Positions 1,641 to 57,350 of a DNA stretch of 64,000 nt are shown one piece after another; the stretch's first letter is position 1, and every line of letters begins with the position of its first letter. Position numbers and translations under genes: made by a program. Below the pieces are notes generated by a model. That model was not told the origin of the DNA, searched no databases, and was given only the letters and a program-made list of their open reading frames with translations. The stretch is from Rhytidiadelphus loreus. Its lineage: Eukaryota > Streptophyta > Bryopsida > Hypnales > Hylocomiaceae. The stretch spans positions 63,197,093-63,261,092 of the forward strand of contig OX344763.1 of the NCBI GenBank assembly GCA_947034895.1. Direction: 5' to 3'.

Positions 1641-1929
1641 TATCCTCGAGGCGAGGATAATAAATAAGTACGACACATTGACAAAATCAGGAGCAAAGTG
1701 ACCTCCACTGGAGGGTAAAATTGAAAACCATTTTGTGGTCATGTATAAGAATCCATCCACCTAGACTAAAGAAGTGGAAATGCAACGAATTAGCACAACA
1801 GAACCATAAAATAGAATTTAATCTAATATCTTTGCATTCCTTTGAATAATTAAGAACATTATTACTTCATCTATCGAACACTCATCCCAAGGAGTAAGAA
1901 AATCAAAGGTATCTTCGATTCGAAGATAC
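1641..1929. repeat. Two family I palindromes upstream of the transposase fragment
   Basis: At 1641-1659 the arms are TATCCTCG and CGAGGATA around AGG. At 1909-1929 a variant has arms GTATCTTCG and CGAAGATAC around ATT. Both stand alone and lead into the dense array that starts at about 2112. They match palindromes at 9.1-11.3 kb and 27-30.5 kb. Confidence 0.85.
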
Positions 1930-2111
1930 GAGACGGCAAAGATTGAGAGATATTATGCATTTCCACACACAACATTGGAGTGTCAGAGTGATTATGTATA
2001 TTAGCTTTGTATATCATATTAAATGTCAATGAATGTCTATGCTTGTCTATGGTTATCATTCACATTCTATGCACGCCTTTGATTATCATTCACATTCTAT
2101 GCATGTCTTCG

Positions 2112-2371
2112 ATTACCCTCGATCCGACGATAATCTTCATGCATGTTTGTGATTATCCTCGGCTCGAGGATAACCACCAACATGTCCGTGATTATCCTCG
2201 AGTTGAGGATAACCTCCAACATCCCCGTCATTATCCTCGAGCCGAGGATAACCTCCAACATTATTGTGATTATCCTTGAGCCGAGGATAGCCTCCATGCA
2301 TAACTGTGATTATCCTCGAGCCGAGGATAACCTCCATGCATGTTTGTGATTATCCTCGAGCCGAGGATAAC
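2112..2371. repeat. Iteron-like array of seven family I palindromes
   Basis: Seven palindromes start at about 2112, 2152, 2191, 2230, 2269, 2309 and 2349, a period of 39-40 bp. Each has the form ATTATCCTCG-N3-CGAGGATAAC with few substitutions; the first is the most diverged. The 17-18 bp spacers are also alike (AACCTCCA...), so the unit is a tandem repeat whose palindromic half is best conserved. Open frames read through the array as repeated DYPRxEDN, which I take to be a by-product. The regular spacing resembles plasmid iterons or parS/parC centromere clusters; that comparison is inference. Confidence 0.88.
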
Positions 2372-2399
2372 ATTCATACATGTATGTGATAAACAAATT

Positions 2400-5300
2400 T
2401 ATAGTTCCGACATTTACGGCGCGAAAATTGGTTGTTCTTTATTGAACATTACATACAAAGAACAACATTTGAGACGTGACACCGATCTTTTGAATACTCC
2501 AAGAATCGGAGGACATTGTAATACTGCATGTACCTTTGCTTAACACTGAGGAGCAAGAGCAGGAATCTAGCATTCAGTGAGAAGGGAAGAAGGGAAATAA
2601 AGGAACTTATGACAACCCGTGCGAAACTAAGCCACCTAATCACATAAACATGTAAATGAAATGCAAAAACATAAGTTCAAAGGCCTTGCGGTAGCAATGT
2701 CTGCAAGAGGCCATGGAGGAGGGAAAACTGGAAAACAGAAGAGAGGAAATGAGGTGCTCGAGGAAGAGAGATGATGCACACACTAGCGGGAGAAAATGAG
2801 CGGGAAATACAACGGCATTTGAATTCTTTATGATTTTATGCGCGTAGGGGAGAAGTACCTCCTTGGATTAGGGGGCTGTTGACATTCTCATCGCCCAAAT
2901 AACGACAACGACGTGGAATATGAAGGAGCTTTTCATTAATAGAATTGGGATCTGTTGTAGCCGATCTTTTTAAGATTGGCATAGGGGGATTTATAGTTTG
3001 TGGAATTTTTGGCAGTCACCTTTTCTCGGAGAATGTGGAGATATTCTTTGTAAGCACAATGGAATTTTGGATTTGTCAAATTTGGCAATTTTTACACCAT
3101 CCGCCAAACAACTTTCTTTTTAAAATAGTTTGTTTTTAAATCTGATTTAGATCAATGTATAGGGGAGGTAACCACACCAATTTGGCACATGTTTGGTCCA
3201 ATGTGCATTGGCTATAAACGGAATTGTACCTAATGTAAGCTTTCAATAGGGAATGAAGTTAGGACTTTAGGGGTTTTGGATCAGGGTTCTCTAGACTGCC
3301 CGGGTGGGCGGGTGGGACATCCCTAATTCAGGGCTTTTCTTGCCTAACTTTAAAATCATGTTAAGATACTACTCAATATCTGTAAGCAAAATACAGATCA
3401 TCTCATTGCTTTTTGCCCATCATAAAAGCTTCATTTATCAAAGGTAATTAAGGTACAATAGAAAGTTTTGTAATTTGTAATCAGGATCCACAGATGGAAA
3501 GTCCAATAGAACAAACACAACTAATAGATCAAGTTTCTAGAAGTAATGTAAAGTAAACTTTTTAAGATCTATCAAAATCATATAAGCTAAAAACATATGA
3601 TTTTAAGTCCCTAAAAAGTAGTGATATGTCACAGCTTGGGAAGAGCCACATGATGAATTATTGACCAAAGTTGTGGACCTCACCTGTCCCCATGACCCAC
3701 CAAACATCCAAATGTTAGTCGATCGTAGACAAGGTGTCTACAACCACGCAGCAGCTTGTTATCACTTATTCACAGTAAATAAAAAATAAAAAACAACTCA
3801 AGTCCACAAGCAAATAAACTCAACCAACTACTGTGCCACAAAATCATTTGGCTAAAAGTAACCTGTGTAGCTGCCATCGAGTCTCAAGTCTCCAATCTTT
3901 AGCAATACAACAATAATCGTGTGGGCCAGACTGCAACTGCACGTTCGCATCCAAAAATATGCAAAAAGTGCCTCACAAACCGGCCTTATAAGTCCACCAG
4001 ATCAAGCACATGAATGGGCTGGTCTTCCCATGAGCTGGCACTCAATCAAATGAGGTGGCAAGGCCATGGTATGGCCAAATGGAGGTACAGCCTTGAAGGT
4101 GAACCAACTCGTTCATTTTTTCCTTTTAAGAGCCACTAAACTCACTTAAAGTAAGCATTAGTGAGTGGTTTAGTAACTTATTTAACGCTTAATCAACCTG
4201 ATAAGTACATCAGGTGAATGATTATTCAGTACATGCTGAAGGGAGGGAAGCTATGGAAATAAGGGCCTGCTAATACAAAGCAATTACCAAATTTCAAAAA
4301 TCAAAAAGCTTTCATAAATCCACCTAATATCCAAAGAAGTGGTATTAATTATTTAATGTAAGGAATTAGGTATATAAGGGGTCTAGTTCACCCTTATCCT
4401 ATAATTTATTTTTTCCTCCGGTATTTATAAAAGGCATGAGCCATTCTTATTGTACCGTATTTTTTCTATATATGAAAGCTATAAGGGGTCTAAACTCATA
4501 TCATACATTCTTTTTTCTATTTTCTTTTTTCTTTTAGCTACATTGGATCAAAGCCAAAAAGAAAAACTTTTTCTACACAAAGCCACTTAGCACAACATGA
4601 CTTAGGGTTTAGGGTTTAGGATTTAGGGATTTAGGGTTTATTGGTTTAGGAGGAACAACAAAGTCTTTATGAAATGTGAATTATATGTTTACGAATTCAA
4701 TGTTCTTCAACATTGTGATTTTGCAAATTATATTGACAATTCATATTTGTTTTTGAAATTCCAATATCCATAAATTGAAGGTTGTTTCTTATTTAAAATT
4801 TATTGGGTTTCTTTTAAAAAAAAATTAAAGCGGATGATTGAACATAAGACTTTTTATTTTGAATATTATTAGTTTCAATTAATAAACAATGTCGAATGAT
4901 GTGGACTCCTAAATGACCATATACATTCAAAATTACCCAAAATATTGCACAATCTCTAATTTAATGTCGTAAAAAATATACACAACTTTGAGCTTCATTT
5001 TTCAAAACAAAGAACAATGTACGATTGTGAATTTTTTGACATTCAATTATAAAAAATAAAAAATTGTTATATTTTATTTTCCATAATGTTGTAATACATT
5101 CTATGGAATTTGCATTTATAGATGAGCACATTAAATACTTGTTATTCTTCTTGTAGAGTATGTTGGAAACCAAAGCAGAAATAAAGCCATTGATGTTGTA
5201 CTTTATAGAATTAAAATCACAAAAGCTAAAAATTTTAATGAGGAAAACTATAGGACAATAACAAAATAATATACTAGTTAAATTATGATAAAAAATTGAA

Positions 5301-7930
5301 AGAATAATGATTCTTCAACATAGTATATTATTTTGTTCAATTGTTTTTTAAATTAGAATGATTTGTGGGCAAAAACCTAAAGTTGGCACAACACTATTAA
5401 GATTTCCAAAAAAAAAAGCCAAAATCTTTTATGAAGATGAAGGAAATAAAAAGCAAATGTTTAAAATATTTCAAAAACAAAGTAGGAGACCAGAACTATA
5501 CAAAGTAGGACCCCTATTTTTACAAGCTTGGTAATTATGTGAAGAGTAAAAAAATTCAAAGACCTTCAGGTTCTAAGAAGTTATTAGCTCCACCTTCATG
5601 GCATTCCAAGCCATGATTTGAAGCATAATTGGCTTAAAATGGGACTACTTGGTTAGGACATTGAAATGAATGATGAACTTTGCATTCATTTGCTACCAAT
5701 CATTATTATTAACTCCATCATGGTTTAGAGACTTGAACCACTTCAATGTCTCATAAATACTCATTATGAGAGGTTCACCTCCTAGAAATGAAATGAAATG
5801 AAATGAGAGGTTCACCTCTAAATTGTATGAAAATACTATACTCTACAAGTTTTATAAATTCTTTACATCTTGTTTACTTAAAACTCATAATTATTCAAAA
5901 AGTGCAAGATTAGGTGTATCAATGAAAGATCTATCTTCTAACTACTATGAACAATTTTGAGTGCTACACTTTTATAATTTTGTCATGATAACTTTTCAAT
6001 AAACAAAATATTATATCGAACTAATTCTTAATCTTTTTAACATAGAATTAAGGAATAAAACAAGCCAAGAATACTTTGTACTTAGAAAACTAAACTTAAT
6101 GCACAACAACCATAGAATTCTAATGAAGAGGGTCAAGTTAACAAAATGTACAAGTTCCATTCTTTCTCTCATTCCACCCTAAACCCTATTCCATAAATTC
6201 AGCAGTAATAGTTCTTTAAACTACTTAACATAAATACTTAATTTTAATGTTTAGATGTGAAGTACCAAACAAATGGCACCAAATTAATTCACACAAGAAT
6301 CATAGATTCAAGTTCAAAATATTTCCAACTTCTACATTTTATTTCTTGTCCCATTTAATGGTTATTCCATATTTTTTTAAATGTTAAATCTTTATAAAAT
6401 GGTGTGTAGAGCTTTACGGGTTAGAATCATCTAAAAAGTAAAAGTTCTTTATAATTACAGAAAAACAAATGGTAAAAACTAAATAGTTTTTATTGAAATA
6501 TTCTTTTATCACGACAATAAATTTATAATTTTAGCTAACTTTAACCCCTGAAGGACCAAGGCCATTCTTCTGTCAAAAACTACTCAAAACTGCCAATTCT
6601 GCTGCATTCATCCAAAAAAACAAAAAAAATACTTTTTTTTAGAATTTTGAGATTGTTCTATATAGAAAACTTAACCTTGTAAAAAAAAAATTTGAATTTT
6701 TTTAAAAATTGCATTCAAAATTGCATTCTACAAGTTATTTTTTCAAGAAGATGCTCAAATTGCCTGAAAAACAAGATTGTTCATAACTTTCACATTACTA
6801 ATCCAAATGGAATGAATCAAAGCTTCACATATAGACAAAAATATGATCTTCAAGAAGAAAAAAATTTTAAAATTAATTTCAAATTTTTGTATATTTATTT
6901 TTTTGCCCATGACGTGTAAATTATGTTTAAGATGCCATAACTTTTGTTCCCGAGCACCAATTGAAATAAAATTTATATTCCCTCGAAGCTAATAAGTTTT
7001 CCTATCTTACGAGAAAGTTTCAAAAAGTTTTACTAAAAATTGAGATCATAGGAACCTGCCCGAAATCCATTTTGTCCCTTGAGGGGACAATGGTCCTTTA
7101 GGGGTTAATAAACTTTGTATTTCATATAAAATTTTAGTATATTAATGGATGAATGTTCATATTTGGATCAATACAATTTCATTGTATATTTCCACTTTGT
7201 CACTTCATAAAAAATGTGAAAAAAAAGTTGAATATTAACTCTGGAAAACATTGTGTGGGAGAAAGATGAGGCAAGAAAGTGTCTAATGGATGACTTACAA
7301 GATTAATATAGAAGTGCACTAATGAAGAATGTACCTATTAATCCAACAATTAGATTGTTGTAAGGATGTTGTAAATCTATAAAGTCCAATAAATGACTTC
7401 ACAATAGAAACACAAAATGCACCTAAAGTAGGTACACTTAAAATTGCACAAATAAGCTTACAGAGCACGTTTTAGAAATTAGGTGTAGTTACCTTATTGA
7501 TTCAAGAATTAGAGGATTTTGGTGACTATAGTAGTATGCTCTAAAAGCGCCCATCTTCTTCAAATGGCCATATAATTCGCTAGAAAATGGAGATGAGGTA
7601 ATCCTTAAATGGATCACTTTAGCCATTTTATGCATTAGAAAAGAAATCATTTTTTTTATTGCAATAGCCAATCATTGTGTTTGATTTCCTCACATATCTT
7701 TACACATTGCAAGTAGACGGATTTGGAGAGACCTATGGCCACAAATAGGTGTCTAGGTTCCAAATCTTTGAAAATTTCCAAGTATTTCAAAAATACTTGG
7801 AAAAATACAAAACCACTTCTATTAAGTTCCACATCTATTTTTTTTTCTCTGAAAAAAGATCCCAAAATATTTCTATCCACAGAAGCCTGAATATTTCTAT
7901 TCCCAAAATATTTCCAAAATATTTCTATCC
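2400..7930. other. AT-rich non-coding stretch with one telobox string
   Basis: I see no gene here. Open frames are short and AT-driven, without recognisable domains. A plant telobox run (repeated TTTAGGG variants) lies at 4602-4655. A short AAATG tandem run between two copies of GAGAGGTTCACCTC lies near 5767-5817. The stretch corresponds in position to 16.7-19.9 kb of element II, which is likewise AT-rich and empty. Confidence 0.6.
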
Positions 7931-7934
7931 ACAA

Positions 7935-9060
7935 ATTTCTGCCCTGACCTACCCCATCCGAACGTTCAATGCAACTTCCGAGTTGCTAGCTTCCGTACTC
8001 ATCTTCCTCCCTCGTTCCGTGCTCACCTTCCTCCTCCCGTTCCGCGCTTACCATCTTCTTCCCGTTCTGCGCTCACCATCTTCTTCCCGTTCCGCGCTCA
8101 CCTTTCTCTTTCCGTTGTCGTCACAGAAACAATTTCCCGACGCGACCCCACCGACTCCGCGTACCTCCGTTGCTCCTGTTGTGCGTCGTACTCCTCCTGC
8201 TGTGCATCATCTCTGCCTCTCCTACCTTAGGGTTTCCTCTCTCTCTCTCCTTCCTTCTTCTCCTACTCCATTATGCATTTCTCCCGCGCTCCTGCGATCT
8301 GGAGCCACTTGTTCAAACTTGTTGCGACCCCAATTTTGCCACATCCACTTGCATTTCTTACTTCAGGCAACATTAGGTGAATCTCTTGCAGGTCGCTGTT
8401 GATTAGGGTTGTTGCCTTGGTAGACGAGTAATGTTATGCATTCTCATTTGCTAGTTCAGTTGCTAGTTTTGTATTCCCATTAGTGTTTTGAACTCTGCGT
8501 GTTCAATTTTGGAGGCGCTACAAGAGATTGCGCTGGGTTCAATAGGCCTATTTTTTTTTTAATTCTTCTGAGTAAACTTCTATCTCTGAATTGCAATTTT
8601 TGAGCTTTGCATGTGTATAGGGTTTTCAGGTTTGCATTTGATTTGATTTGCATTTGTAGTGCTGAAGTTCTTGTAAACCTGGATTGGCTTTCAAAGTTTT
8701 TGGTACTATTAAACTAATTGTTTAGTTATTAACTTTTTGGTATTGTTAAACTAATTGTTTAGCTGGAAACTATAGCTGGAAACTTAGGGTTTCTAGAGTT
8801 TCCAGCTATAGTTTCTGGAATTTGCATCTTCAGTTGGCCTACTTGTTTTATCTATTCCATTGTTGTATACATCAATTCATCACCTTGTTGCAATTGGAAT
8901 GCAACTATAACTGGCCTAGGTTTTAGATTTTGGGTGTGAAATTTATATGTCTTTGTTCTTGGATTAGGGGTTTAGAACGTGCGTAGGATACATTGAATTT
9001 TGAAAAGTGGATAATTTCATTGGATTTGAATATCGAATAGGGTTTTCACCACAATATTCA
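7935..9060 (+). promoter_or_regulatory. C+T-rich leader region upstream of the ParB-MTase gene of element I
   Basis: The base composition changes abruptly from AT-rich to a C+T-rich tract (about 7940-8360) with TTCCCGTTC and TCTCTC runs, followed by T-rich sequence with TTAGGGTTT and TAGGGTTT strings. This is typical of plant 5' untranslated regions and first introns. Open frames in it are proline/serine/leucine-rich translations of the CT tract and are not convincing genes. A near-identical 29-bp direct duplication lies at 8697-8725 and 8734-8762. A comparable leader stands at 19.98-21.9 kb in front of the element II module. Confidence 0.5.
8766..8815. repeat. Perfect 18-bp inverted repeat (hairpin) in the leader
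   Basis: Arms at 8766-8783 (GAAACTATAGCTGGAAAC) and 8798-8815 are exact reverse complements separated by 14 bases. The stem could form in DNA or in a leader transcript. It shares nothing with the CG-centred palindrome families. No terminator or microRNA role can be argued from the sequence alone. Confidence 0.8.
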
Positions 9061-9083
9061 TCAATTTTTCATGATTAAAAAAG

Positions 9084-9708
9084 ATTATCCTCGGGCCAAA
9101 GATAATGGTCAGAAAAGTCGAGGATAAACTGCAGCCTAAAAAACCACAATACCAATTAAATAAGTAATTTGAGTAAAATTTATCTTCGTCTTGAGGATAA
9201 AAACCTCAAAGCAAGACGCATATTCTATAATAAAATTAGAATAGCCGAAAGTTATCTTCGGCACAAAGATAGAAACGCAACAGAAAAACACAAAATTTTA
9301 TAATTAAAATAAACTCAGGAGTAGTTATCCTCGAGGCGAGGATAATTGACCTCGAAACAAGACGCAAATTTTATAACAAAATTAAAATAAGCAAAAGTTA
9401 TCCTCGGCTCGAAGATAGAAATGCAATAGAAAATAACAAAATTTTATGTTTAAAATAAAGTCAAGCGTAGTTATCCTCGCCTCGAGGATAACTAACCACA
9501 AAAAAAATACAATGTAATGAAAATAAAATAAGAGATCCTACAGCATTATATTCATCCCAAAGATACTGAATCGTGATCTTGACTTGCAAATAAAGTCTGA
9601 ATATTGATCAGTGCTTTTTCTATGATATATAGCCTGTTATGATCATTATTCAATGGATTTACATTAGTCAGAATTTCTTTTGTCTATTATCTTTGAGGCG
9701 AAGATAAT
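9084..9708. repeat. Cluster of family I palindromes just upstream of the ParB-like start
   Basis: Sites lie at 9084-9106, 9180-9200, 9252-9272, 9325-9345, 9398-9418, 9471-9491 and 9687-9707, with a half-site at 9117-9129. Consensus arms are TTATCCTCG and CGAGGATAA around three bases; CTTCG/CGAAG variants occur. From 9180 to 9471 the starts fall 72-73 bp apart five times running, so this is a second regularly spaced array, about double the 39-40 bp spacing at 2.1 kb. The cluster ends 57 bp before the likely start codon at 9765, in a position suited to autoregulation or nucleation. Confidence 0.85.
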
Positions 9709-9764
9709 CTCATGAAATTACAATTATAAACTTAATGGTTTACTATACACAGATCCATACCAAC

Positions 9765-12115
9765 ATGGCTGCAGATTCTGAGTATGACTACTCAGCTACA
9801 CTCCCGTTTCTTGAGCCATTCAACAAGTGGGTGGATGAGGAACCCTTCATAACGGAGATGCCAGAGCTCTACGGCAAGCTCTGGCAATTCAAAGCCGTTG
9901 TTGACTCTTGGACATTCGGTGTCAACTAGTCCAAAGACTACATCTACCTTTGCCACCGAGTAAATGACAGCGGGATATACTTGAATTGGAACCTCAGTGA
10001 GAAGGTCGCACTCGTGGAGAACCACCAAGACAAGTACATTGTCATCACCCTACAAGGATACGACAACGCTGGGAGGGAAACAAAACATACCCATTCCATT
10101 GTCTGCCATGAAGATGACTCTGTGGGAGTTGTCGACTTCGACAACCTCATCGCCGACTTGCATTCGGCAAACCTCAATACTTTGGCTGAAGACTTTATTT
10201 CAAGGTACCACCCCTGGCTGAGAAGGAATGCCAGGGCCATGGCGAGGAAAATTGGGTACATGTTCCACAAGCTCACAGAGCATGCTAAGGAACATGTCCA
10301 CAAAGGACCTACTCGAGCGAGTCACGGTCGTGGTCAACAAAGGCAGGAAACTACCGCTGAGACCAAATCAACGTCAGGAGTGTGTGGCCGTACAGGGAGT
10401 AGAGGAAGTGGGAGAGGAACGGCCCGCCCTCAGGCCCTGAAGAAGAAGAACTCGGACACCAGTACCGGTGAGCCCAATAAGAAACGCAAGAAATCTATAG
10501 CAAAGACTCGCCCAGCAACTGGTGGCAGTTCAGGCTTTATACTCACAAATGTGAATCCAAGGAAGCCATCAGATAAGAAGCCGATCGAAAAACATAAAGT
10601 GGCTAAAGCGTATCAATCAGATTTTTGGAAGGAAAATGGCAAGTGCTTCATTTTTCATCCCAAAATCTTCACAATAAGCATCAAACAATGCTTCCTGGCC
10701 AAGGAAAGATACATTATCCGAAAGCTTGAAATGAGAATGGTGTTTGAGATGAGAGACATCCTTGTTCATCTTGGCTTTGAGCAGCAAAGACAAAAACTTT
10801 GCTTGACACCTATGGATGCCAATAAGAAACTTCTGAAGGAGCGTCCAAAGGATTGGGATTCTATCAAGAACGAAGGCTTCTACATTATTAATGGCCAGCA
10901 TAGTGTCACTACTGCCAAGCTTCTACAACAAGAAGGATGCTGTAAGACTTGGAAGATCGAGTTGCAGACGTGGGAGGCTATAATTGTCTGGACTAGAGAC
11001 CCTAAACAGCTCACAGCTATATCGAAATGGTGCAATGCCTCCAATCACCTCGTTCATAGTCAACCAATGTGGGGGAACCAAATTTCCACATGTAGGCAGG
11101 TTTGGAAGGAGCTCAAGTGGCCTACCAATATTGAGAATGAGGGATTGGTGAGGCGGAACAAAGCCGTCTACAACCTTGCAGCATACAAGGTATGTCCTAT
11201 TATCTTCAAGGCGAAGATAAAATGTATATGTTCATGATCTAGTTGTCTTAATGTATTGCCTCTTTAGCGTTTATTATCTGTAATTTAATGTTCGGTGATC
11301 TCTGTCACAATTATCCTCGGGTTGAGGATAATGGTTAGAAAATCTGTTTGCATTGAGCTGTGAGCTTACTGCATTGAATATCCGTCTCCACAGGATTTTG
11401 TCAACGCTGTCATGATTCGGTATGGCAGCATCAACCTGGACAAGAAGGGAGCATAGGTCAAGCTCGCATCGGATGTCAAGAATGAAATTCGAATTATTAC
11501 CTTGGCCAATGAGACTTACCAGATGTGGGAGGAGTTCCTCCAAAAACACATGGAAGGATCACTGATTCATCCCGTGACGCGCAAATCATTCAAGAGCGCA
11601 AAGACCTTCAACAAGAAGAATTTCTCACTGAAGAGGGAGTTCTTCAAGCATATGTGACACTTCACAGACAATGATCTGAAGGATTACATCCTCCATCTGC
11701 TTGGGAGAACAGAAGGTCGCACACGGGACTACCCAAAGGTCTCAAAGTGTGCATCAAAGATCTTGTGCGAGGACAATTATAAAGTCGAGCACTGGGTAGA
11801 GCGGAGGAAGCAAAAGAAGGTCATCATGGAGGAATTCATGGCCCTCAATAAGTCCTTGAAATTCAAAGATAGACATGGGGAAGTCATTGACGTGGCGTGG
11901 AGGCAATGAAAGCGCGACAACATATTTTCCTCGGCATCATGGGACTTCCTCCTCATCGCCACACCCAACCAGTTCTTCGTCAAGCGCCTCACCAATGAGG
12001 CAAAGAAGAAGACTGCAATAGACTACAAGGACAACCCAAAATTGTCGATGGTCTATAACATGTTCAAGACTTTTTTGAAGATGAAGAAGCAGGTGGAGCC
12101 AGTGGATGGGGATGT
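9765..12115 (+). pseudogene. ParB-MTase fusion gene of element I, 5' part (ParB-like domain)
   Basis: Exon 1 runs 9765-11189 and opens MAADSEYDY. After an unrecognised N-terminus and a basic linker, a ParB-like region follows, with the signature IINGQHSVTTAKLL near residues 373-386. It corresponds to the G-x-H-R-x-x-A box of ParB/Spo0J proteins, with Ser in place of the usual Arg. A GT-AG intron spans 11190-11393. Exon 2 continues from 11394 and is cut at 12115 by element II. In-frame stops are TAG 9927-9929, TAG 11454-11456, TGA 11655-11657 and TGA 11907-11909, with no frameshift, so this copy is decayed. The frame resumes at 26362 after the insertion. ParB proteins bind palindromic parS sites and hydrolyse CTP; whether this divergent domain does so is unknown. 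Confidence 0.7.
11200..11331. repeat. Two family I palindromes inside the ParB-gene intron
   Basis: TTATCTTCA-AGG-CGAAGATAA-type at 11200-11220 and TTATCCTCGGG-type at 11311-11331 both lie within the intron 11190-11393. One is 11 bases from the donor and the other about 60 bases before the acceptor. Apart from splice signals they are the most structured part of the intron. Confidence 0.85.
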
Positions 12116-12359
12116 AACACTATATTCAATATTTTGAGAGGTTGAGGGCCTCTCAAAATAATATTGAAAACTTAGATGCTAAAAAATGTATGTAGTTTTA
12201 GCCAATTCAAGTTGGCAAACACTAAATATATTAGTAGTACTAGTGCAATTTCCATTAAAATGAGAGTCTTTACGAATGATCATATGTTTGAATAAATTTA
12301 TTATGGTGTAAAATAAATGTTTTTATTCCAATAAATGAAGAATATGTCATTTGTTGAAC

Positions 12360-12600
12360 ACCAAGTCAGGAGCTCGATGGTTGGTTGTAATTAGTTCATT
12401 ATCTCATTCAAGTGTTCCGGGTTCGATTCCCGTTGAATTTGTATGAGCGCATGGGGGATAAATTTGACTTGGTCCTACTAAGTGAGCTTTGTAGGTAGGA
12501 AAATTGTAACAACCAATTGCCCCTAGCCAAATTGTAACAAGTACTTTACACAGTACCCAAATAAATAGTGGATTTTTCCACTTCACTTTTTTTTAAATAA
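12360..12600 (+). mobile_element. Probable tRNA-derived SINE
   Basis: An exact pol III B box, GGTTCGATTCC, lies at 12420-12430 within CCGGGTTCGATTCCCG. An A-box-like AGCTCGATGGTTGG is at about 12370-12384. The body continues to a T-rich tail ending about 12597. No clover-leaf anticodon arm is convincing, so this is a tRNA-like promoter with a SINE body, not a tRNA gene. It sits between the left end of element II and the transposase. Confidence 0.5.
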
Positions 12601-12908
12601 TTACTAATATAATTTCAAATGAAAGATATATTCAATGATAAAGAAATAAGAAAAGAATTTGAAAAACTATAATAAATAAAACACGGCAATATAATAGGAT
12701 ATATATAAATATGATATGTACATTTCATTGTCTTCTAAAACAAAACATATATTTCAAAACATCTATGTAGGAGCAAAGAATAAATTAAAAAAATAAAAAA
12801 TAAAACTTATACCACATAATTTAATATATAAATTCCATCTAATATATAAATGAAGAAGATGGTAAAAACAAAATTAACCAACTCTACACCATAAATTCAC
12901 ATAGAACT

Positions 12909-16594: not shown

Positions 16595-16599
16595 ACGTT

Positions 16600-23843: not shown

Positions 23844-23866
23844 TCACCTGTTCATTGTTTTGTAGT

Positions 23867-46624: not shown

Positions 46625-47214
46625 TGCCACCCAATTTGTTGCACCAAATCCTCGAGTCCAGTGCACAGTGAAATTACGTGACCGCATGTACCGACAAAAG
46701 CCACCAAATCAATGAACACAGTCCTCCTGAGAACCCTTAGTGGCGACGGAGGGGTCGGTGGCATAGAGGTTTTCGAAGAGGGACTCAAAAATCCAAACCT
46801 ACTAACCAGGGGTCTAAGATTCGTATTGTTGAGGAATGCGTGACATCATGGACCAAACGGCAAGGTCAGGTTTTCCAAATTCGATAGGGAGGTCAGGACT
46901 GGTCTACCCTGTGGTGGGATCCCCTTTGTCATTGTTCAAAGTACAGCCTCTAGTTTATTTTAACTGTCAGTAATTACTAACTGTCACCGTCATCTTATTC
47001 GTGATATACCATACTGACATGGATGTAGCTTGCTAATTCCTGGAATAAATGTAGAGTGTACTTCTTCAATTCTAAATTTCTAGGAGTACCAACCAAGGAG
47101 TAGTACTTGATGAAGGACCATTAAATAGTAATTAGTGACTACCGTTGTAGTCATGTTTTTCCAGCGTTTAGTTGGGGCACCATACACTATATGTAGGATT
47201 GACACAATTCAAAT

Positions 47215-50200
47215 TTGAGAGAAGTACAAAATCGTTCTTTGAATTTCTCAGTCCCTTTGGGCTGTGATGATACATTCATTTCATGCATTTCAATTGCCGT
47301 TACTTGGATGGTGCATCGTCAAGGTGGTAATCTATTATTTCCGAGGTTTGCACGGCGAGTTAGAATGGCATTTGATTCAATGGTAGTTGTGAGGGCACTT
47401 GGAGTCTTCGTTCCAATCTCTTTTCTTGTTGGTGACATCGGATATGCGGTAGTGAGTTCATCTCGATTGAGCTCTCGCTTTCTTCTTACGGAGAACTCCC
47501 TGGAAATTGATGAGGAGGTTATTGATAATTCGAGTGGGGACGTTACGCATACAGTGGGTCAGGAGGTCGTCATCGTTGGCCCTATTAGGCATTGGAATTT
47601 GCGTCCAGGCCGGTATTTAGCGTATGGATTACCTCTATCCGTTGATGGAACTTTCACTCTAGGAGGTACTACAAGAGTTTCTAGCACTAGCAATTTACAG
47701 ACACCGTTGTTGAATACTGTGAAGATTGAGCCTGGAATTGATGTCATTCACATTGACAACCATGATTCTGATGGCTCGGCGCCACGTTCCAAACCCTTGA
47801 AATCTGGTTCTTCTCCTTTAGTTCATGGGCTTAAAATGTCTTCTTCCCTTTCTCCAGCCTCTATGGCACCTTCTTCATCTTCTCAGCAACCCTCTATCAT
47901 TCCTTATCTACAGAAGTTAGTCCGTACAAAGGGGTCTCGAAATCCGTTTAAAAAGGTCGATTGGAATGTAATTCGAGTGTTCGTTGTCCATTTTGTTCCT
48001 TCTTTGTATAACGGTGATGTGATATTTGAATTGCCCGTACTTCGAGATCACTCTGGGTTTTACTCTCAAGCAAAGCTTCTCGCTGGAATGGAGAAGCGCT
48101 ACGATGGTCACGTCTGGTCAAATCTGCATACAACAAACATCAAGAATGGAGACGGTCTGACATTTAGATTATCATCTTGTGTGGGTCATCTTCGCTGTGT
48201 GAACTCATCTTGTGACTACCTAACTCGTGAGCACCATGTAGCCCTCATCAATGAGACCGAATGGGATGGTTGTTCTCCTGTTCCATTTGAGGTTCAAGGT
48301 AGCCCTCCACCGGAATCAACGATCATGTGCAAGATTTGTTGCATTGCTCCATCTTGTATCCGTACTTGTCCTGCCAAAGTATATTACATAGTTGGCTCAG
48401 CAGATATGACTCGAGCTTGTGTTCATTTTGGTTCTCATGATCATCTTGTGAGAGTTGGAGACTGTCGAGACTCGAAGGACAAGACTCGTTCTATGATTTC
48501 GGATCAAGTTGAGCGAAATCCATTTGCAACAAATTCTGCTATCATCTTAGAAGCAAGCAAGGAGTTCTTGGGAGGGATGCTTCTCCGAGCGGAAGGTGCT
48601 GCGCCCACTGCATTTGGAATACATGAATTGACGCCAGTTCTCGAGAAATGCAAATTCATGAGTTCCCCAAATATTCGAAACGAAGTCACCACATTCAAGT
48701 ACTTCCGCTGTTTTGGAGTCATGGACAGCATCACGAAACTTCGGGGTTGCAGCAATTGGGCATTTGTTCAAGAGAACAAATTCCCTGGGTAGGGATCTGA
48801 CTCTGATAAAGTGTTTGTGTTCAAAATGTCAGAGGTTGGTCTTGGGAGTGGCGTAGACCTAGTAATGCGCATGCAGCCGAGAAGAGACTTAGAAGATGGT
48901 TGGATCATGTTCGATCATGTGAGGCGGGTGAAACAGTGGACAACAATAGCATATCATGTTTATGACACGACATATTGTCGTATAATGACTATTGCGGTGT
49001 CGGATATGCAATCAGAAGATGTAGTTGCTCAGTGCGCATTTTGGAAGAATTTGAACACCATTATGGGCAGACATGGAATTCCATTGCCTTACTTCAAGGG
49101 TTTCATGGCTGATTCGGCACAAGCGAATTGGAATGTGGTGAGGATTGTTTATGGCAGTGGTGATCCTGCTGCACCCATGTCGAATAGGGAGTGCACATGT
49201 TTATTTCACTGGACTCAGTCGTTGGAGAAACACACTAAAGCGGACATTCGCGGTGACCTCCAAGATCAACATCGGAAGTTGTGCAAACAGTATAAAGATG
49301 CAAACTCCTTAGAGGAGTCAGAAATTAGGTTCCATGCCATTCGAACATGGTGGCATTCTTCAGGAACCACAACAAAGGATGGTCTTCGCCGACTGGAGTT
49401 GTGGTTAGCCTTCTGGCATTTCAGATACAGACAGTGGGGAGCCTTCATGGACACTGTGAGTTTTTTTACTTTATGAACTAAGTTTGTTCACTCGTGCACT
49501 TCACTACCTAGTTTCTTACTTCAGTGGTTTAGATGACCTTCATTGGGTGTCTTTTTTAATTATAGTTGCTGCTGTATGTTTGATGAGTACCACATCCATT
49601 AATGTGGAACCCCGAACTCTAAGCCCCTACATACTTCTCTGCCTTTATTGCCAATATGACTAACGTCAACTTTGTGGTACAGGGATTGTCTCAAAATGAA
49701 CTCGTGCAGGTTCCTACTTGCAACCTTGCTGAGACGGTCCATAATAAATGGATGCAACAATCAGGAAAACGTGGGAATGATTTGTACGTAGCTACTGTGG
49801 ATGATTATGTTAGGGCGTTCATGCAGATGGTTAGATACTATCAATTTTTGAAAGGTGAGAGACTAGGTAATGGTCCAGGAAAAGAAGAACTACTGCTCCG
49901 TTCCGCCCAAAGGTACGCTCAACATACCGGTAATCCAAAGGGCCTAAACAATGTCATGGCAACAGTGCCAGGCATTGGAAAATATTGCAATTGACAGCCT
50001 CATTTAGAAGGTAAAGAAGTTTTTGGATCAGAGAAGCGAATGCCCAATCTTCCACCTGGTTTTGAGCAAGATTTACACCGACCTGACAAAGTAAATTTCT
50101 CTCGACCCCGAGTAGGAACGAGGAGCACCCATGCCCACGTATTACGTACTAGCTTGGAGACCATTACTGAAGATGTGTTGCCTCCGGCTAATTATGAGGA

Positions 50201-51152
50201 TACGGTATTCTTGGAGTCCCGTGAGCCAGTGTCAACATGTGAAGCAGTTGGAGACTCTCGAGTGAAAAGGGTTCAAGAAACAACTTGTGTCGAGTCGGAA
50301 TGGCATATTGCCCGCTTGAGCAAGATGTCGTCAAAGGCATGTTTTGCATTGCAAGCGATTACTAGAAAAAAGTGCATAGCAAAGATAGTGCAAGGCAATA
50401 GGGGAACCGCTGCACCTACATACACAGGCAATATGGACAATTACAAGAAGAATAGAATTGAGAAGATGCAATTCTTCTTTTGCAACGACGACATCTCGCG
50501 ATGCATGAAGGGTTCACTTCGAAAGTGGGTTCTCTCAAAATCGGAAGTGCTAGACATTTGGCCAGTACAAGTGGGAACTAGTCTTACGCCCAAGGAAATT
50601 TTGGACCTCCAGAATGCAGGTTTCTGTCTACCGCAATGTCTTGAAATATCTCCCCGCAGGCTATTTGGAAACCATGTTGTACCAGCTGATATTTCGGGAG
50701 TTCGAGTTCCAAACTCTCCCACAGAGCATCCAAGTACAAGGTCAAGTAAGAAAATTTGGAGAAACCCCAAATCCCCTACAACTAAACAAGCAAACAACTG
50801 CGCTTCAGCACTTACCTTGAAGGCAGTGGTTCGTCAAGTCACTATGGTACCGGAGCCCAGCTTTGGATGCATCATCATCCTTGACTCAAGTACATCGCTT
50901 GTCATTGAACAGTACATGATCAGTATAGGATCATTCCCTGATTGTTCTTGCCCTAATTTTAAGGAGATGTCAACAAAGGCTTTAGGAAAAAGAGGACAAT
51001 GGGCAAATTGTAAGCATTTGTACTTCTTGTTTGTTGGTGTCTGCCAATTACATGCAGAAGTAGATGTGTTTATTCATGCTCCAAGCTTTAGCTTTGACGA
51101 GGTGAAACGTCTTTTTCAGAGTGGCATCTTGAATCTGAGACACATTCAGTAG
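47215..51152 (+). pseudogene. MULE-type transposase with GCM/WRKY-like and SWIM zinc fingers
   Basis: One long frame with one GT-AG intron (49456-49682, phase 0) and two in-frame stops (TAG 48790-48792, TGA 49992-49994) but no frameshift. The N-terminal half has a GCM/WRKY-like DNA-binding domain: DGHVWSNLHTTNIKNGD, LRCVNSSCDYLTREHH and later Cys/His residues near CVHFGSHDH. The DDE part includes GWIMFDHVRR, YFKGFMADSAQANW and CTCLFHWTQSLEKHTK. The C-terminus has a SWIM finger, CSCPNFKEMS to WANCKHLYF (CxC...CxH). The start at 47215 is the open frame limit; an ATG-rich stretch near 47299-47370 is an alternative. Such proteins cut and paste elements with long terminal repeats, which fits its place in element III. 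Confidence 0.8.
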
Positions 51153-52760
51153 ATGTAAAAAGGTGTTTGCCACTAGAGATAGCTCAAAACACATGTGGGT
51201 GATGTTCTTCAAACGTGTTTCATGTAACCTTTGTAGTGAGACTAAAAGGGCCACTACTTGATCTGAGTTCTTATTTATTTTCTGGAAGTTGCAGAAGAAA
51301 TCGTGAGTGCCACTGTTTCTACCTCTAGTATCATCCATTTACATTTCTAAGTGTTATAAATGTTCATTACTGGTATTCAATATAGATATTGTCTCCCTAA
51401 AATTCAATTGAACAAATGCCTAATTGGAAACTGGAGATTGAAAATGGACTTCCAGAAAATTCAAGTTCTTGAATGATAATGCTAGGACTACGGGATGAGA
51501 TTATGCAAAAGGAGAGCACTATAAAGGAGCCTCTCGGTGCCGAGAGGTACATCATGGTACAATTAGGTTTGCATAGAACGTATCCTTTGAAGCTGTAAAT
51601 GAAGTAGAATTAGTTGTGGAAGACAATCCATTTATGATCACCTCCAGTACTTTTTAGTATAGTACAATTCTCTTTCTATACAATCCGAATGTGTAGTGAT
51701 GATCCTAAACCTTGGTTCCCAACCAAGGTCACAAGCATTTTCATTGTGTACATAGTTGTCAATATTGGAAGCACACCGTAGTCTTAAATTTGAGACCCGT
51801 ATGACCAATGTGGTATGAACTCAATTTCTAGCTGCACAGTCAAGTAAGTATTAGTTTTGAGAATGTAAATCTTAACAAATGTATCTAGGTTGAACTCTGA
51901 AGTACTCTTGAGATTCAGTAGCCTAAACAATTCTTACAAACATAAATGTGTATATATTTTGTACCATGGATGAGTGATCTCACGGTATTAGGTCCACGGT
52001 TATAGGTATACATTCTCACCTAAACCGCAGGGAATGGATCTTTTTGTGTCCTAAGTCCCGGAACCCTTAAATCCTAATGCAAAGTAACCGCGGATGATAG
52101 CAAAACACATGGTTTTCTGTCCACGGTGGATAGTCATATGCCAAGATACAAAGGATTCATGTATTAGACCACCCCTGAAGTTTAGTTCAAATCCATCACT
52201 AAGTCTTAGCGCAAAATAGTTGCTTGAACAATTAATTAAAAATTCTATCACTAAAACCCTAATTCAAATGTCTCTTGATGGTTACTTCTATAGAGGACTT
52301 CCATCCTCCCTAATACCAAATTGTATCATGCGTACAAGATATGATTAGAAATGAAATCACTATAATCTTAAACCACAAAAAACAAAACGTATGAATCCCA
52401 TTGTAGAAGGACCTGAATGTTATTATCACTATTGCAGGCAAGGTTGGGACCAAAAGAACTCACCGTTGCACCCCCACATTATAATCCTCAACTACATGTG
52501 GTCTGAACCTATCTAAAAAAATTTCACCCCTTCAAATGGTAGTCTAGTATAAATTAAAACATCTAAAGATCAAACACAGTTTCTGTTAGTTTTGTGAAAC
52601 TAACGACAATTCCCTAGAGCATGCTTATTTTGCCCAAAAATAGGCCAACAGTTCATCGATTGTAATGATATTATTGAAATCAGTGTGGAAGAATTCTTCA
52701 TCTTTAATCCTTTGCCCTATCATATATTACAACCCTATTCTGATATATATACGTACTCCC
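51153..52760. other. Non-coding right part of element III with one family III palindrome
   Basis: No gene is supported. At 51530-51547 the site CCTCTCGG-TG-CCGAGAGG matches the intron-1 family III sites and is the most complete of them. The rest is AT-rich. Confidence 0.6.
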
Positions 52761-53390
52761 TTTTTATCATTTTCTTTCATTCATATTTCTACCCAATTTC
52801 ATGTACTTCTTCAAGTCACGTGCATCCCCATTTTCCACCCATCATCATCCAGTTTGTAATCTTCTTTCATCCATTTTAACATCTAATTTCATCCATATCT
52901 GTCATCTACTGTCATCCATTGCTCTCATCTACTTTCATCCATTTTTTACATATATTCTCATCCACTGTTTTCATCTACTTTCATCTATTTTCTTCATCTA
53001 CTTTCATTCCTTTTTCCAATGGGATTCATCCATATTAACATCACTTTTCATTCACTTGTTGTGGTCATATTGAATGCCAACCAATTTATATACTTCTATA
53101 CATTTTCTAAAATCTACTAAAAATCACACTTGCTTTGACCTTCAGCTACTTTCTGAAATTTCATTCACCCCGGACCATTTGCAATTGTCCCACCAATTCT
53201 CCTCTCTTTCCCTACGAAAATGTCATCAAATGTTTTCATCCACCTCCTTACATCATTTGAATTATTTTTTTCATCTTTTTTCTAAAACATATTGACCTTA
53301 AACCCTGAAATCCACCTTCATTCAGTTTCTAAATTATTCTTTATACCATTTCATCAATTTTTTCCCTCCTTTTCATTTAATATAGAAGCT
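52760..53390. repeat. TTTCATCC minisatellite, right subterminal region of element III
   Basis: TTCATCCA/TTTCATCTACT-type units are the reverse complement of the left-end GGATGAAA units. Together they form long, diverged terminal inverted regions. Open frames here are repeat translations. Confidence 0.78.
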
Positions 53391-54950: not shown

Positions 54951-54952
54951 CT

Positions 54953-55315
54953 GTGCTGCGACACCATCCCGTCCGCTGTCCTCGCCTTCCGTCCGCCCGT
55001 TCGCGCCGTCTCGTCCGCGGTCCACGCTTTCCGTCTGTCATCTGCGCCATCTCATTTGTCATCCGCGCTTTCCGTCCGCCGTCCGCGCCTTCCGTCTACC
55101 TGACAACGGCTCCTGTCCACCCACGCACGCCTTCCGTCTGCCGTCCGCAGTGTTCGCCCGCCCGCTTAATCGCGCTGACCGCCATCCGCACCGTCCGTCT
55201 GTCCGCTCATCCGCGTCGTCCAAACGGCCGACGGATGCCGTCCACATCATCCGCATGTCCCGAAAATCTGGATGTGTGGACGTCCAAAAAATGGACGTGA
55301 TTTTGCCCCGGACAT
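54953..55315. repeat. CCGTCCGC-rich low-complexity block
   Basis: Repeated CCGTCCGC, CTTCCGTCTG and TCCGCGCC strings form a sharply GC-rich block beside AT-rich sequence. Open frames in several phases are Arg/Pro/Ser translations of the repeat and are not genes. It borders the inverted element II fragment. Confidence 0.65.
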
Positions 55316-55329
55316 TGAAATTTGTCAAC

Positions 55330-57350
55330 CCTGCTGCCATTGGATATAGAGTACAAACGGTCCATGAGAAAATTATATATTACATGCTCTTAAAATGAGT
55401 TTTAGGATACAAAACTGAGATAAAAAAATTTAAACTCTATAGCCTACACCCCTTGGGAATGGTGGTCCGCAAAAAATGAATGCTATATCTACAAAACTCA
55501 ACACTTGCCGCACAACCACTCAAATCAGCTCGATTTGAGCTGAAACTACAAAACAATGAACGGATGATCATTGGACACAACCTACTAGTGGATCATCGGC
55601 GAGTAGCACACCACTTCCAACTTCCACGTCAAAAGCATCCACAGTCAGGTTGTATCCAACCATTGCAAATTCCGTCACGGTCGATGAAGCCACTTCCAAT
55701 CCACCTAGGGGCTCATCTGATGGTGAGTCATGTATAGTAGCTGACGCCGACAGATCATCCGTCGGAGGAAGAGGTGGAGAATGTGGTGCATTGACAGGTA
55801 GAGGTGGGCATTGGCTCAGTGGCTCCGGATGGCTTGATGCTCCACTGACGTTGGACGTAGTCGGATGTTCTCCGAGCAACAACTGTGGTGACGACTCCAG
55901 CGGCACAATTGAAGCTATCAACGGAATCACATTCCTTATCAATAGGGCCTGAAAGAAGTCCCTATTCGTCTGAGACTCGTTCTGCATCCACTGTTGCGTA
56001 CTTTTATGCATTTGCATGTTGAGTACCCGTTGTTCCGCTTGTTCTGCTTACAATGTCACAAGAGCGAGCTCTGTTCGCTTCTGCGACAATTCATTTTGCT
56101 CCTGCATTCTTGCGATGGCTTCGGCATTTCTCTGGTTAATATCCACCAGCTGCTTTACGACGCTAGCCATGGTATCTTGTTTCTGTCTCTTCTGCGCCCC
56201 CCAAATGGAGTTTGTGACGAAGGTGGCAGCATCGAGGAACCAAAGGATCTGAGGACATCGCTGAGCATGCGACTTGTAGGCGTTGGCATATCATCCAGCC
56301 ACTCGACTTCCATCAAATCAATGTCTTCCCCATCGTCTGCGTCATTCGAAGATAACTCCTCAACATCGTCGACTACTGGAGTAGGTGGCCTCTTCAAGTG
56401 AGTGCGAGGCGACTCCTAATTGAATCGCAATATATGGCGTGACGATGAAGGGGTCTAGGATCTTGGAGGAATGATGGATGATTTCACAAGATATCCACTC
56501 TCCAAGAAATCCGACTTGTCTAAATTCAATGCCTTAGTATAGATATCCTGCCACCAGGATCCGAGCTTTGATGGACCTGATGCATAAACATCAACCAAAC
56601 TCATCTACACGACCGAACAACAAATGTGAGATGAAGGGTAGAATCATGTACCAAATCAGCTCGAGTCGAGCTGATCATACATATGAAACAACAACAATGA
56701 TCATAAGTCAATACAATCACCATGACAAAATTGGTTGCGACCATTATTTCAGGACTAGTTCGTACCATAGCAGTGCATGTAAATTTGCCTCCTGCAAATC
56801 TTGATAATACGCACATGCTCAGATTGCAGAACTTCTTAATGAGCCATAGATAAAATTCCATCCATAATTTCGTATTGTAAATACGGTACTCAAGCTCGAT
56901 GTATACCTTTGCCTTCATATAGCAAGTAGTTTCAGGGCACCCGAATTCTTCTGGAATTTCAACAGGATTTGTATTGCTAGGGCATTGTAAAAATATGAGC
57001 AACACTTTCTTTGATGTCTTTGACACTGGAAGATTGCACAATCGATCGTTCTTGCCCGCACTATACAATGCAAAATCAGCAGTATATGAGCTCAGCACCT
57101 CGTTCAATTCTACGAAGCTTAGTATTTGAGCTTGCTCTTTTTCATCTGCACAGATGAAGAGCCACGACGGAACTTCTTCAAATGCCGGCTTCTTTGCTTT
57201 GCACAAAGATGTAATAACTTCAACAAAGAAAGGATTATCACCAATTGATTTATCCTTCTTCTCAATCCCCGGCAAGTTCTGAAAATCAATCACACCGAGG
57301 GCCATTCTCCTAGGTGTATCCAACACCCAGGCGTACTTCATCCATTCCAG
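55330..57350 (-). mobile_element. Inverted fragment of an element II relative (MTase-like gene, broken)
   Basis: Minus-strand sequence matches 22.09-24.08 kb throughout, including the intergenic part and both palindrome positions (56655-56675 in the intron, 55525-55545 after the gene). The MTase-like exon reads MKYAWVLDTPRRMALGVIDF from 57341, then MEFYLWLIKKF. The second exon follows from about 56605. It lacks the two TAG stops of the element II copy (both are CAG here) but has its own one-base deletion near 56195 and a TAA in the coiled coil. It breaks off at 57350 against gag-like sequence and at about 55330 beside the CCGTCCGC block. HAD gene and ends are absent. Confidence 0.8.

What the first reader, a model, noticed from the sequence alone, without database searches (positions are those of the whole stretch)
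1641..56675. Three element-specific families of CG-centred palindromes, candidate parS-like sites
Element I has TTATCCTCG-N3-CGAGGATAA, element II has ATCAGCTCGA-N-TCGAGCTGAT, and element III has CTCTCGG-N2-CCGAGAG. Each family appears many times in its own element, and I did not see family I or II sites outside elements of their type. They cluster near transposase and ParB/MTase genes. ParB proteins recognise palindromic parS sites, so ParB divergence paired with site divergence would form a lock-and-key identity system. Such a system could serve silencing escape, copy recognition, segregation or modification.
Basis: partly seen in the sequence, partly recalled or inferred. Interest (0 to 1): 0.92.

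Follow-up and report, generated by a model that had tools for sequence, protein, structure and literature searches.

The report
Giant moss transposons with private address codes
Related giant jumping genes in what looks like a moss genome each scatter their own 21-letter palindrome through their non-coding parts, and these palindromes change together from family to family, as expected if each family makes a protein that recognises only its own kind.

Summary
Elements I (about 18 kb) and II (16.5-17.6 kb elsewhere; a 14.2-kb copy is nested in element I here) are related TIR transposons with 4-bp target duplications. They share a DUF7869 protein (putative transposase), a divergent ParB/DGQHR-like plus methyltransferase-like gene, and a CTD-phosphatase-like gene. 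Motif I occurs exactly 1781 times in the 407-Mb genome, motif II 145 times, reversed controls 0 times. In nine fetched copies, I sites (165) occur only in I and II sites (58) only in II. Both fit one 21-bp frame, X5-YZCG-N3-CG-Z'Y'-X5'. Fifteen further loci show more versions of it, each tied to a ParB/methyltransferase-like clade. Sites at matching places (intron 1, after the methyltransferase-like exon) change in concert with upstream sites: arm identity 0.88 within a locus, 0.66 between clades; 0 of 1307 permutations reached the observed statistic. One DUF7869 stretch without a detectable ParB module has no such sites. Best reading: an element-encoded reader recognises its own family, like Arabidopsis VANC anti-silencing. 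Canonical parS partition is not supported.

The parts
1..31516 (.). Element I (continues 1868 bases left of the window); interrupted at 12116-26357 by element II. Right TIR near 31490-31516; the left TIR was not seen in this copy
   Evidence: blastn to five other copies; TIR AAGGCCATATTCATTAAATTGAGA in four other copies
12116..26357 (.). Element II, 14,242 bp, nested in the MTase-like exon of element I; TIR AACACTATATTCATTAAAATG; 4-bp TSD ATGT at 12112-12115 and 26358-26361
   Evidence: alignments of five I copies overlap by 4 bp at the insertion
3..1514 (-). Element I DUF7869 protein (putative transposase), broken into several frames
   Evidence: 90-93% to the intact I copy
1640..2370 (.). 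Family I palindrome cluster, 40-bp spaced array, 5' of the DUF7869 gene
9085..9707 (.). Family I palindrome cluster, about 73-bp spacing, 5' of the ParB-like gene
9930..11234 (+). Element I ParB/DGQHR-like exon (NGQHS box)
11200..11331 (.). Two family I sites at the place of intron 1, between the ParB-like and MTase-like exons
   Evidence: the same place in other copies
26354..26827 (+). Element I MTase-like exon, 3' part (the 5' part lies before 12115, split by element II)
26997..27150 (.). Family I sites after the MTase-like exon
27179..28483 (+). Element I coiled-coil gene (reading by eye); sites at 28072 and 28252 lie in it and encode DYPRGED
29195..29851 (+). Element I NIF/CTD-phosphatase-like gene; a site at 30049 follows it
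   Evidence: PF03031 4.5e-08
12912..15689 (-). Element II DUF7869 protein in two frames (13866-15689 and 12912-13862)
   Evidence: PF25273 3.9e-33
15901..16594 (.). Family II palindrome cluster (5 sites), 5' of the DUF7869 gene
22071..22679 (+). Element II MTase-like exon, 3' part. No ParB-like exon was found in this II copy
   Evidence: 70% to the II copy of L013; among window ORFs of 60 aa or more the II ParB query hit only 9930-11234
22753..23887 (.). Family II sites 22753 (after the MTase-like exon) and 23867
24441..25091 (+). Element II NIF/CTD-phosphatase-like gene
   Evidence: PF03031 6.5e-14
55334..57347 (-). Reversed remnant of an II-type element (MTase-like ORF 56604-57362) with family II sites 55524 and 56655
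38594..53374 (.). Element III: tentatively Mutator-like, with GGATGAAA-type repeat arms; possible 9-bp TSD ATTTAATAT; SWIM-like protein ORFs at 47203-51149 (+)
   Evidence: Mutator/SWIM reading by eye, Pfam found no family in these ORFs
43280..43873 (-). Element III ORF with a ParB/DGQHR-like box (CDGNHRR)
   Evidence: phrog_1033 ParB-like E 0.44 only; Pfam none of note
45013..45751 (.). Family III near-palindromes inside a duplicated minisatellite; one further exact site at 51531

Best explanation
Each family of these giant DUF7869 transposons encodes a site-specific DNA-binding protein, most likely the ParB/DGQHR-like plus MTase-like protein. It binds as a dimer to a 21-bp palindrome, X5-YZCG-N3-CG-Z'Y'-X5', placed in most non-coding intervals of that family's elements (5' of both divergent genes, introns, after later genes). 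Binding marks the element as self, across its length, in trans on all copies, most likely to keep it from being silenced. This would work like the VANC proteins of Arabidopsis VANDAL elements but uses an unrelated, bacterial-type protein. When a family shifts specificity, its sites shift together, so related families stop recognising one another. Shown here: element anatomy, site specificity, concerted divergence, match to protein clade. Inferred: which protein binds, dimer binding (from symmetry), and the anti-silencing effect.
For: Exclusive segregation of 165 I and 58 II sites among nine copies; 1781 and 145 exact sites genome-wide with 0 control. The template (CG at 8-9 and 13-14, 7 of 9 arm pairs) finds 83 sites in 15 loci against 1.64 in base shuffles (max 7 of 50), and only 1-7 with any other dinucleotide in place of CG. 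Arm types by clade: ATCAG-CTCG; TTYAG-CTCG; TTYAG mixed CTCG/CGCG; TTTAG-TGCG; TTTAG-CGCG; ATCAG-CGCG; TTATC-YTCG and TTATC-ATCG upstream of other DUF7869 genes. These groups agree with the ParB-like and MTase-like trees. A site lies in intron 1 in 21 of 22 loci and after the MTase-like exon in 20 of 22 (shuffles 0.46, max 3, and 0.51, max 4). These sites match the same locus's upstream sites (0.877) better than other clades' (0.661); 0 of 1307 permutations reached the clade-level value 0.8755, the best being 0.869. 22 of 25 sites of one I copy and 14 of 14 of one II copy are non-coding. Half-sites co-vary at positions 6/16: C-C 94, T-T 30, C-T or T-C 33, other 8 of 165, copies related. ParB-like (29%) and MTase-like (26%) exons differ more between I and II than DUF7869 (49%) and NIF (35%). 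A 12.7-kb stretch with a DUF7869 gene and no detectable ParB/MTase/NIF homologue has 0 template sites.
Against: No residue set in the ParB-like or MTase-like exon follows the twice-arisen ATCAG arm (1 and 0 columns, not above other clade pairs). ParB homology is weak: no ParB family among the Pfam matches shown for 46 members (25 of 27 families shown), PDB profile search none, DGQHR TIGR03187 E 0.0085 in 1 of 46, phrog_1033 E 0.17. The ParB-free control is one stretch of unknown element borders, and tblastn there also missed its diverged DUF7869 gene, so a diverged ParB could be missed. No binding, methylation or expression data. Clade match alone is expected from shared descent of whole elements. 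CpG o/e of about 0.8 in the elements gives no sign of heavy past CpG decay.
Confidence: 0.47

Rival explanations
1. Operator sites of an element-encoded repressor or activator: the protein autoregulates the element's genes (copy-number control) rather than opposing silencing. Binding is the same; the output differs.
For: Sites cluster 5' of the divergent DUF7869 and ParB-like genes; the DGQHR hit points to a family that includes DndB, a repressor (recalled).
Against: Sites also lie in introns and after later genes, spread over the element; 13-35 sites per copy at up to 3 mismatches are more than operators need.
Confidence: 0.2
2. Another element protein, above all the coiled-coil protein encoded between the MTase-like and NIF-like genes, is the reader; the lock-and-key reading stands but the ParB/MTase-like protein has another task.
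For: Coiled-coil proteins of I and II have no significant similarity; sequence has a basic, leucine-rich stretch (by eye); no covariation was found in ParB/MTase-like exons.
Against: No known DNA-binding family was found in it (window 27200-28486); such fast change can also mean low constraint.
Confidence: 0.12
3. Recognition and target sites of a working self-modifying methyltransferase: the protein writes 6mA or 4mC (or blocks 5mC at the conserved CGs) at its own palindromes.
For: 46 of the 50 Foldseek rows shown for the MTase-like exon model are METTL3-14, METTL4, M1.HpyAVI or MTA1/AMT entries, though many are the same protein, no E is below 0.016 and mean pLDDT is 43. CG is the favoured dinucleotide at 8-9/13-14. 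Ectocarpus authors propose self-modification for such proteins (passages of PMC12477816).
Against: The expected DPPY-type catalytic motif reads DFRNLP / DFRILP and motif I GGKF / GSKF, suggesting a non-catalytic fold; placed by eye.
Confidence: 0.1
4. Transposase (DUF7869) binding sites, as in subterminal repeats.
For: One site cluster lies 5' of the DUF7869 gene in I, II and L038-L041.
Against: Sites are internal, in introns and between genes, not at the termini; the DUF7869 stretch without a detectable ParB module has none (L037, 4.7 kb, also none); DUF7869 changes least of the genes compared.
Confidence: 0.08
5. Host transcription-factor sites or chance tandem duplication of a neutral hairpin.
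For: Part of the sites are in tandem arrays.
Against: Non-tandem sites in introns changed in concert with upstream sites; families differ; 0 expected by chance.
Confidence: 0.04
6. True parS-like partition or copy-segregation sites, as the first reader suggested among other options.
For: Palindromes plus a ParB-like domain.
Against: Dispersed integrated transposons do not need partition; the box is GQHSV, not the arginine box of CTP-binding ParB (ParB motif recalled); no ParA-like gene was noticed in the elements (ORFs read; no ParA search was run).
Confidence: 0.02

Closest known systems
ParB-like + N4C/N6A methyltransferase accessory proteins of giant transposons: Ectocarpus Sola1-1_Ec32; green and red algal cases cited there (PMC12477816, passages and part of its reference list)
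   Same: Giant (over 10 kb) DNA transposon; ParB-like and MTase-like domains in one protein; gene on the strand opposite the transposase; authors guess that it binds its own transposon
   Different: No binding sites were described in the passages seen; here are the candidate sites, in several families with concerted divergence. Here the ParB match is weaker and the MTase motif altered. Host is moss-like, putative transposase is DUF7869
VANC / VANDAL anti-silencing of Arabidopsis (PMC5735166, passages; PMC10398659, abstract and outline)
   Same: Short family-specific motifs, often tandem, in non-coding regions; motif and protein diverge together among related elements
   Different: VANDALs carry VANC, not a ParB/MTase-like protein; motifs are 8-9 bp; here no binding or demethylation has been shown
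Bacterial ParB-methylase fusions such as Bce_0392 (mentioned in PMC5512222, passages)
   Same: ParB-like domain and adenine-MTase-like domain in one protein
   Different: There the ParB domain is reported to have non-specific nicking activity; family-specific palindromes are not mentioned in the passages seen
Canonical ParB-parS partition (recalled)
   Same: Palindromic site with a ParB-like domain
   Different: No partition context; the box lacks the arginines; many sites across dispersed elements

Membership tests
ParB-like/MTase accessory proteins of giant eukaryotic transposons | ParB-like and MTase-like domains in one gene | tested here: inconclusive
   Adjacent exons with a GT..AG intron (by eye); one Physcomitrium model (P0119, 1042 aa) runs through both. 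The identity of both domains is weakly supported
ParB-like/MTase accessory proteins of giant eukaryotic transposons | Carried by a giant DNA transposon, opposite strand to the transposase | tested here: met
   TIR, TSD, 16.5-26 kb copies; ORF strands. That DUF7869 is the transposase is inferred
Sola superfamily | 4-bp target duplication | tested here: met
   ATGT, GAAG, TATC, TCGT, CTAT. The 4-bp rule for Sola is recalled
Sola superfamily | Homology of the transposase to Sola transposases | not testable with these tools
   No repeat library; DUF7869 is not annotated as Sola in the calls made
ParB/Srx-DGQHR domain | Profile match to ParB or DGQHR models | tested here: inconclusive
   TIGR03187 DGQHR E 0.0085 in 1 of 46; phrog_1033 E 0.17; no ParB family in the 25 of 27 Pfam families shown; PDB none; ParB AF2 model unusable, pLDDT 31
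Canonical CTP-binding ParB | Arginine-rich GxRRxxA box | tested here: not met
   Box is GQHSVxA, nearly invariant in 46 sequences; ParB box recalled
Beta-class N6A/N4C methyltransferase | Fold | tested here: inconclusive
   46 of the 50 rows shown (329 matches in all) are of this class, but best E is 0.016 on a low-confidence model
Beta-class N6A/N4C methyltransferase | Catalytic (D/N/S)PP(Y/F/W) motif | tested here: inconclusive
   Likely equivalent reads DFRNLP or DFRILP, placed by eye
VANC/VANDAL | Family-specific short motifs in non-coding regions, diverging in concert | tested here: met
VANC/VANDAL | VANC protein homology and Mutator-like transposase | tested here: not met
   Genes with a family match are DUF7869 and NIF; no VANC-type model appeared for the ORFs scanned
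VANC/VANDAL | Binding and loss of DNA methylation in trans | not testable with these tools
   No wet data

The most novel reading that the evidence does not exclude
A eukaryotic transposon superfamily carries a self-recognition code: a 21-bp palindromic frame with separable outer (TTATC, ATCAG, TTTAG/TTCAG) and inner (CTCG, TTCG, ATCG, CGCG, TGCG) words read by its own ParB/DGQHR-MTase-like protein. Families diversify by switching words, giving an independent, bacterial-derived counterpart of VANC anti-silencing and supplying the missing binding sites for the ParB-MTase accessory proteins known from algal giant transposons.
Probability: 0.42. Interest if true: 0.88.

Novelty: new variant of a known kind. 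Interest (0 to 1): 0.78.

Why it matters
ParB-methyltransferase proteins have been noticed in giant transposons of brown, green and red algae, and their role was a guess (PMC12477816, passages seen). This gives them candidate target sites in a land plant, in many families whose site sequences change together. That makes a direct test possible: express each protein, map its sites, swap domains. If it is anti-silencing, it would show that a VANC-like lock-and-key escape evolved more than once from unrelated proteins, and it would offer sequence-specific epigenome tools.

Tried and rejected
Residue covariation in the ParB-like and MTase-like exons with outer arm (ATCAG versus TTYAG) or inner word: columns shared only by the two ATCAG clades were 1 and 0, no more than other clade pairs, so this was dropped as evidence. 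ParB structure: AF2 model with pLDDT 31 was useless. Sequence searches for ParB in Pfam, NCBIfam and PHROGs and PDB gave only weak hits or none. Literature searches for DUF7869 (0 papers), ParB with moss or Physcomitrium and family-specific palindromes with anti-silencing showed no earlier description of these sites in their listings; only open-licence PMC papers are held. Family III as a third member of the same system: its motif has a different frame (CTCG-N4-CGAG), 5 of 6 near-sites are in one minisatellite, and its element seems to be of another superfamily; kept as weak. Genome-wide counts of family III and of TTTAGCGCG-N3-CGCGCTAAA were not obtained, and an own-genome search with the II ParB-like exon did not complete. 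Sampling and dropped rows: the ParB tree left out copy Ic (short fragment); 15 of the 90 places listed (1049 candidates) were read for the II branch; the 92 family I MTase-like matches scored (of 1030 candidates) were 85% or more alike, so no intermediate between the I and II branches was sampled. On re-check I lowered the best explanation from 0.50 to 0.47 and the novel case from 0.45 to 0.42, because the coiled-coil gene proved to diverge faster than the ParB/MTase-like gene.
Full report
What the window is. The window is G000:C3:63197093-63261092 of an unnamed 407-Mb eukaryotic genome. Named homologues of its DUF7869 protein are from the mosses Ceratodon purpureus and Physcomitrium patens, and named homologues of its ParB-like protein from Physcomitrium patens, so I take the host as a moss; the tool does not name it.

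Check of the sites. Motif I occurs 7 times exactly and 21 times with up to 3 mismatches; motif II 3 and 9 times; 100 shuffles give 0 for both. Motif III occurs once exactly and 6 times with up to 2 mismatches, against 0.07 expected. Five of those six are in a GC-rich minisatellite whose halves are a 79% duplication. Genome-wide, motif I has 1781 exact places and motif II 145, with none for the reversed patterns. One search lists only the first places: of the 62 distinct motif-I places listed (my hand count), 60 fall in five stretches that I fetched, all of which hold element I copies.

Anatomy. Comparison of ten stretches shows element I as an about 18-kb unit (one copy is 25.8 kb) and element II as a 16.5-17.6-kb unit. 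In the window, element II (12116-26357, 14.2 kb) sits inside the MTase-like exon of element I, flanked by the 4-bp duplication ATGT. Both have related TIRs (AAGGCCATATTCATTAAATTGAGA and AACACTATATTCATTAAAATGGGAG) and 4-bp target duplications in other copies too. Both encode, left to right, a DUF7869 protein on the minus strand and, on the plus strand, a ParB/DGQHR-like exon, an MTase-like exon, a coiled-coil gene and a NIF/CTD-phosphatase-like gene. Identity between I and II falls from 49% (DUF7869) through 35% (NIF) to 29% (ParB-like) and 26% (MTase-like); the coiled-coil proteins show no significant similarity at all (best E 0.24). The window's II copy has no ParB-like exon that my search could find. 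Element III is separate, about 38594-53374, with a possible 9-bp duplication; I call it Mutator-like from a SWIM-like stretch read by eye, while Pfam found no family in its ORFs.

One frame, many words. Motifs I and II are both 21 bp and share CTCG-N3-CGAG in the same place; the outer five bases differ (TTATC, ATCAG). In nine fetched copies the two families never mix: 165 I sites and 58 II sites at up to 4 mismatches, all in their own kind, none in about 22.7 kb of flanks. A search with the II MTase-like exon found 90 scored places at 60-100% identity among 1049 candidates. I fetched about 4.2 kb around 15 of them, chosen to spread over identity. The template N5-NN-CG-N3-CG-NN-N5 with at least 7 of 9 arm pairs gave 83 sites against a mean of 1.64 in base shuffles within 200-base blocks (max 7 of 50), and 1-7 sites for every other dinucleotide in place of CG. 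The words differ by clade: ATCAG-CTCG (II; L030; L029 with a single strict site); TTYAG-CTCG (L021, L024, L032-L034); TTYAG with mixed CTCG/CGCG halves (L022, L031); TTTAG-TGCG/CGCG (L023); TTTAG-CGCG (L025; L027 and L035 with a more variable first base); ATCAG-CGCG (L026, L028). Regions 5' of four other DUF7869 genes add TTATC-YTCG (L039, L040) and TTATC-ATCG (L038; L041 with only 2 sites).

Clade match and concerted change. Maximum-likelihood trees of the ParB-like (20 rows) and MTase-like (21 rows) exons agree with these groups: the II, L022/L031, L026/L028 and L024/L032-L034 groups are strongly supported in both; L025 joins L027/L035 only in the ParB tree, and L021 joins L024/L032-L034 only in the MTase tree. 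ATCAG appears in two separate places, so it arose twice or was exchanged. Across 22 loci, under a looser rule, a site lies in intron 1 in 21 and just after the MTase-like exon in 20; shuffles of the same intervals give 0.46 (max 3) and 0.51 (max 4) loci. L026 lacks both sites and L029 the second. These sites match the same locus's upstream sites at 0.877 of arm positions, against 0.661 for other clades. With clade-level pooling the observed value is 0.8755; none of 1307 sampled label permutations reached it, though the best came close (0.869), as some clades have similar words. Intron borders GT..AG around the site can be read by eye in several loci. 22 of 25 sites in one I copy and 14 of 14 in one II copy are non-coding; the three coding ones sit in the I coiled-coil gene. 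Within family I, position 6 and its partner 16 vary together: C-C 94, T-T 30, C-T or T-C 33, other 8, as expected of a two-fold symmetric reader, though copies are related and these counts are not independent.

Who reads the sites. A 12.7-kb stretch with a diverged DUF7869 gene (L042 plus L036) has no detectable ParB-like, MTase-like or NIF homologue and no template site, and 4.7 kb of a second (L037) has no template site either. The borders of that element are not known, and the same tblastn search also missed its own diverged DUF7869 gene, so a diverged ParB-like gene could be missed. With the fast divergence this points away from the transposase and towards the accessory genes. The direct test, residue covariation of the ParB/MTase-like exons with the outer word, was negative, and the coiled-coil protein remains a rival.

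What the proteins are. The ParB-like identity rests on an almost invariant (N/D)GQHSVxA box in 46 homologues, a DGQHR hit at E 0.0085 in one of 46 and a ParB-like PHROG at E 0.17; Pfam and PDB profiles gave no ParB match. It is therefore at best a distant ParB/DGQHR-like domain, not a canonical ParB. For the MTase-like exon a poor AlphaFold model (pLDDT 43) still ranked METTL3-14, M1.HpyAVI and MTA1-type entries in 46 of the 50 rows shown, all with E above 0.01; the expected DPPY motif reads DFRNLP or DFRILP, so catalysis is doubtful. A Physcomitrium gene model (P0119, 1042 aa) spans both parts.

Mechanism. I favour an element-encoded reader that marks all copies of its family along their non-coding parts and counters silencing. 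VANC proteins work this way, with 8-9-bp motifs in tandem repeats of non-coding regions that change between related VANDALs (PMC5735166, passages; PMC10398659, abstract). Autoregulation is the main rival; a different reader, self-modification, transposase binding and partition are less likely. None is tested biochemically.

Relation to what is known. Ectocarpus Sola1-1_Ec32, 21.5 kb, carries a ParB-like plus N4C/N6A MTase protein on the strand opposite its transposase. Its authors note green and red algal counterparts and suggest that they bind and modify their own transposon (PMC12477816, passages). The moss-like elements here look like the same kind of accessory system, with what may be its first described set of family-specific sites, as far as my searches go (listings only).

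Noticed in passing
29195-29851 and 24441-25091: Both element types carry a NIF/CTD-phosphatase-like gene (PF03031), an unusual transposon passenger that might act on RNA polymerase II or chromatin.
   Followed up: partly
L002 (I_a 15042-15494); window 28072-28272: In family I some palindromes lie inside the coiled-coil coding sequence and encode the repeated peptide DYPRxED.
   Followed up: partly
32807-35203: Ty3/gypsy-like fragments (RNase H PF17917 1.6e-24 at 34697-35206; RT- and protease-like ORFs by eye) beside element I.
   Followed up: no
4602-4650 and 17607-17643: Short TTAGGGT (telomere/telobox-like) arrays inside element I and inside element II.
   Followed up: no
60836-61814: Long GC-rich minisatellite of 20-145-bp units (ACCCCGACCCC type).
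   Followed up: no
L042+L036 and L037: A higher-scoring DUF7869 clade (about 1083-aa ORF, several copies with equal scores) lacks template palindromes in the stretches read; its accessory genes, if any, are unknown.
   Followed up: partly
43280-43873 and 47203-51149: Element III, tentatively Mutator-like, also carries a ParB/DGQHR-like ORF (CDGNHRR), which would mean that this module was taken up by more than one transposon superfamily.
   Followed up: partly
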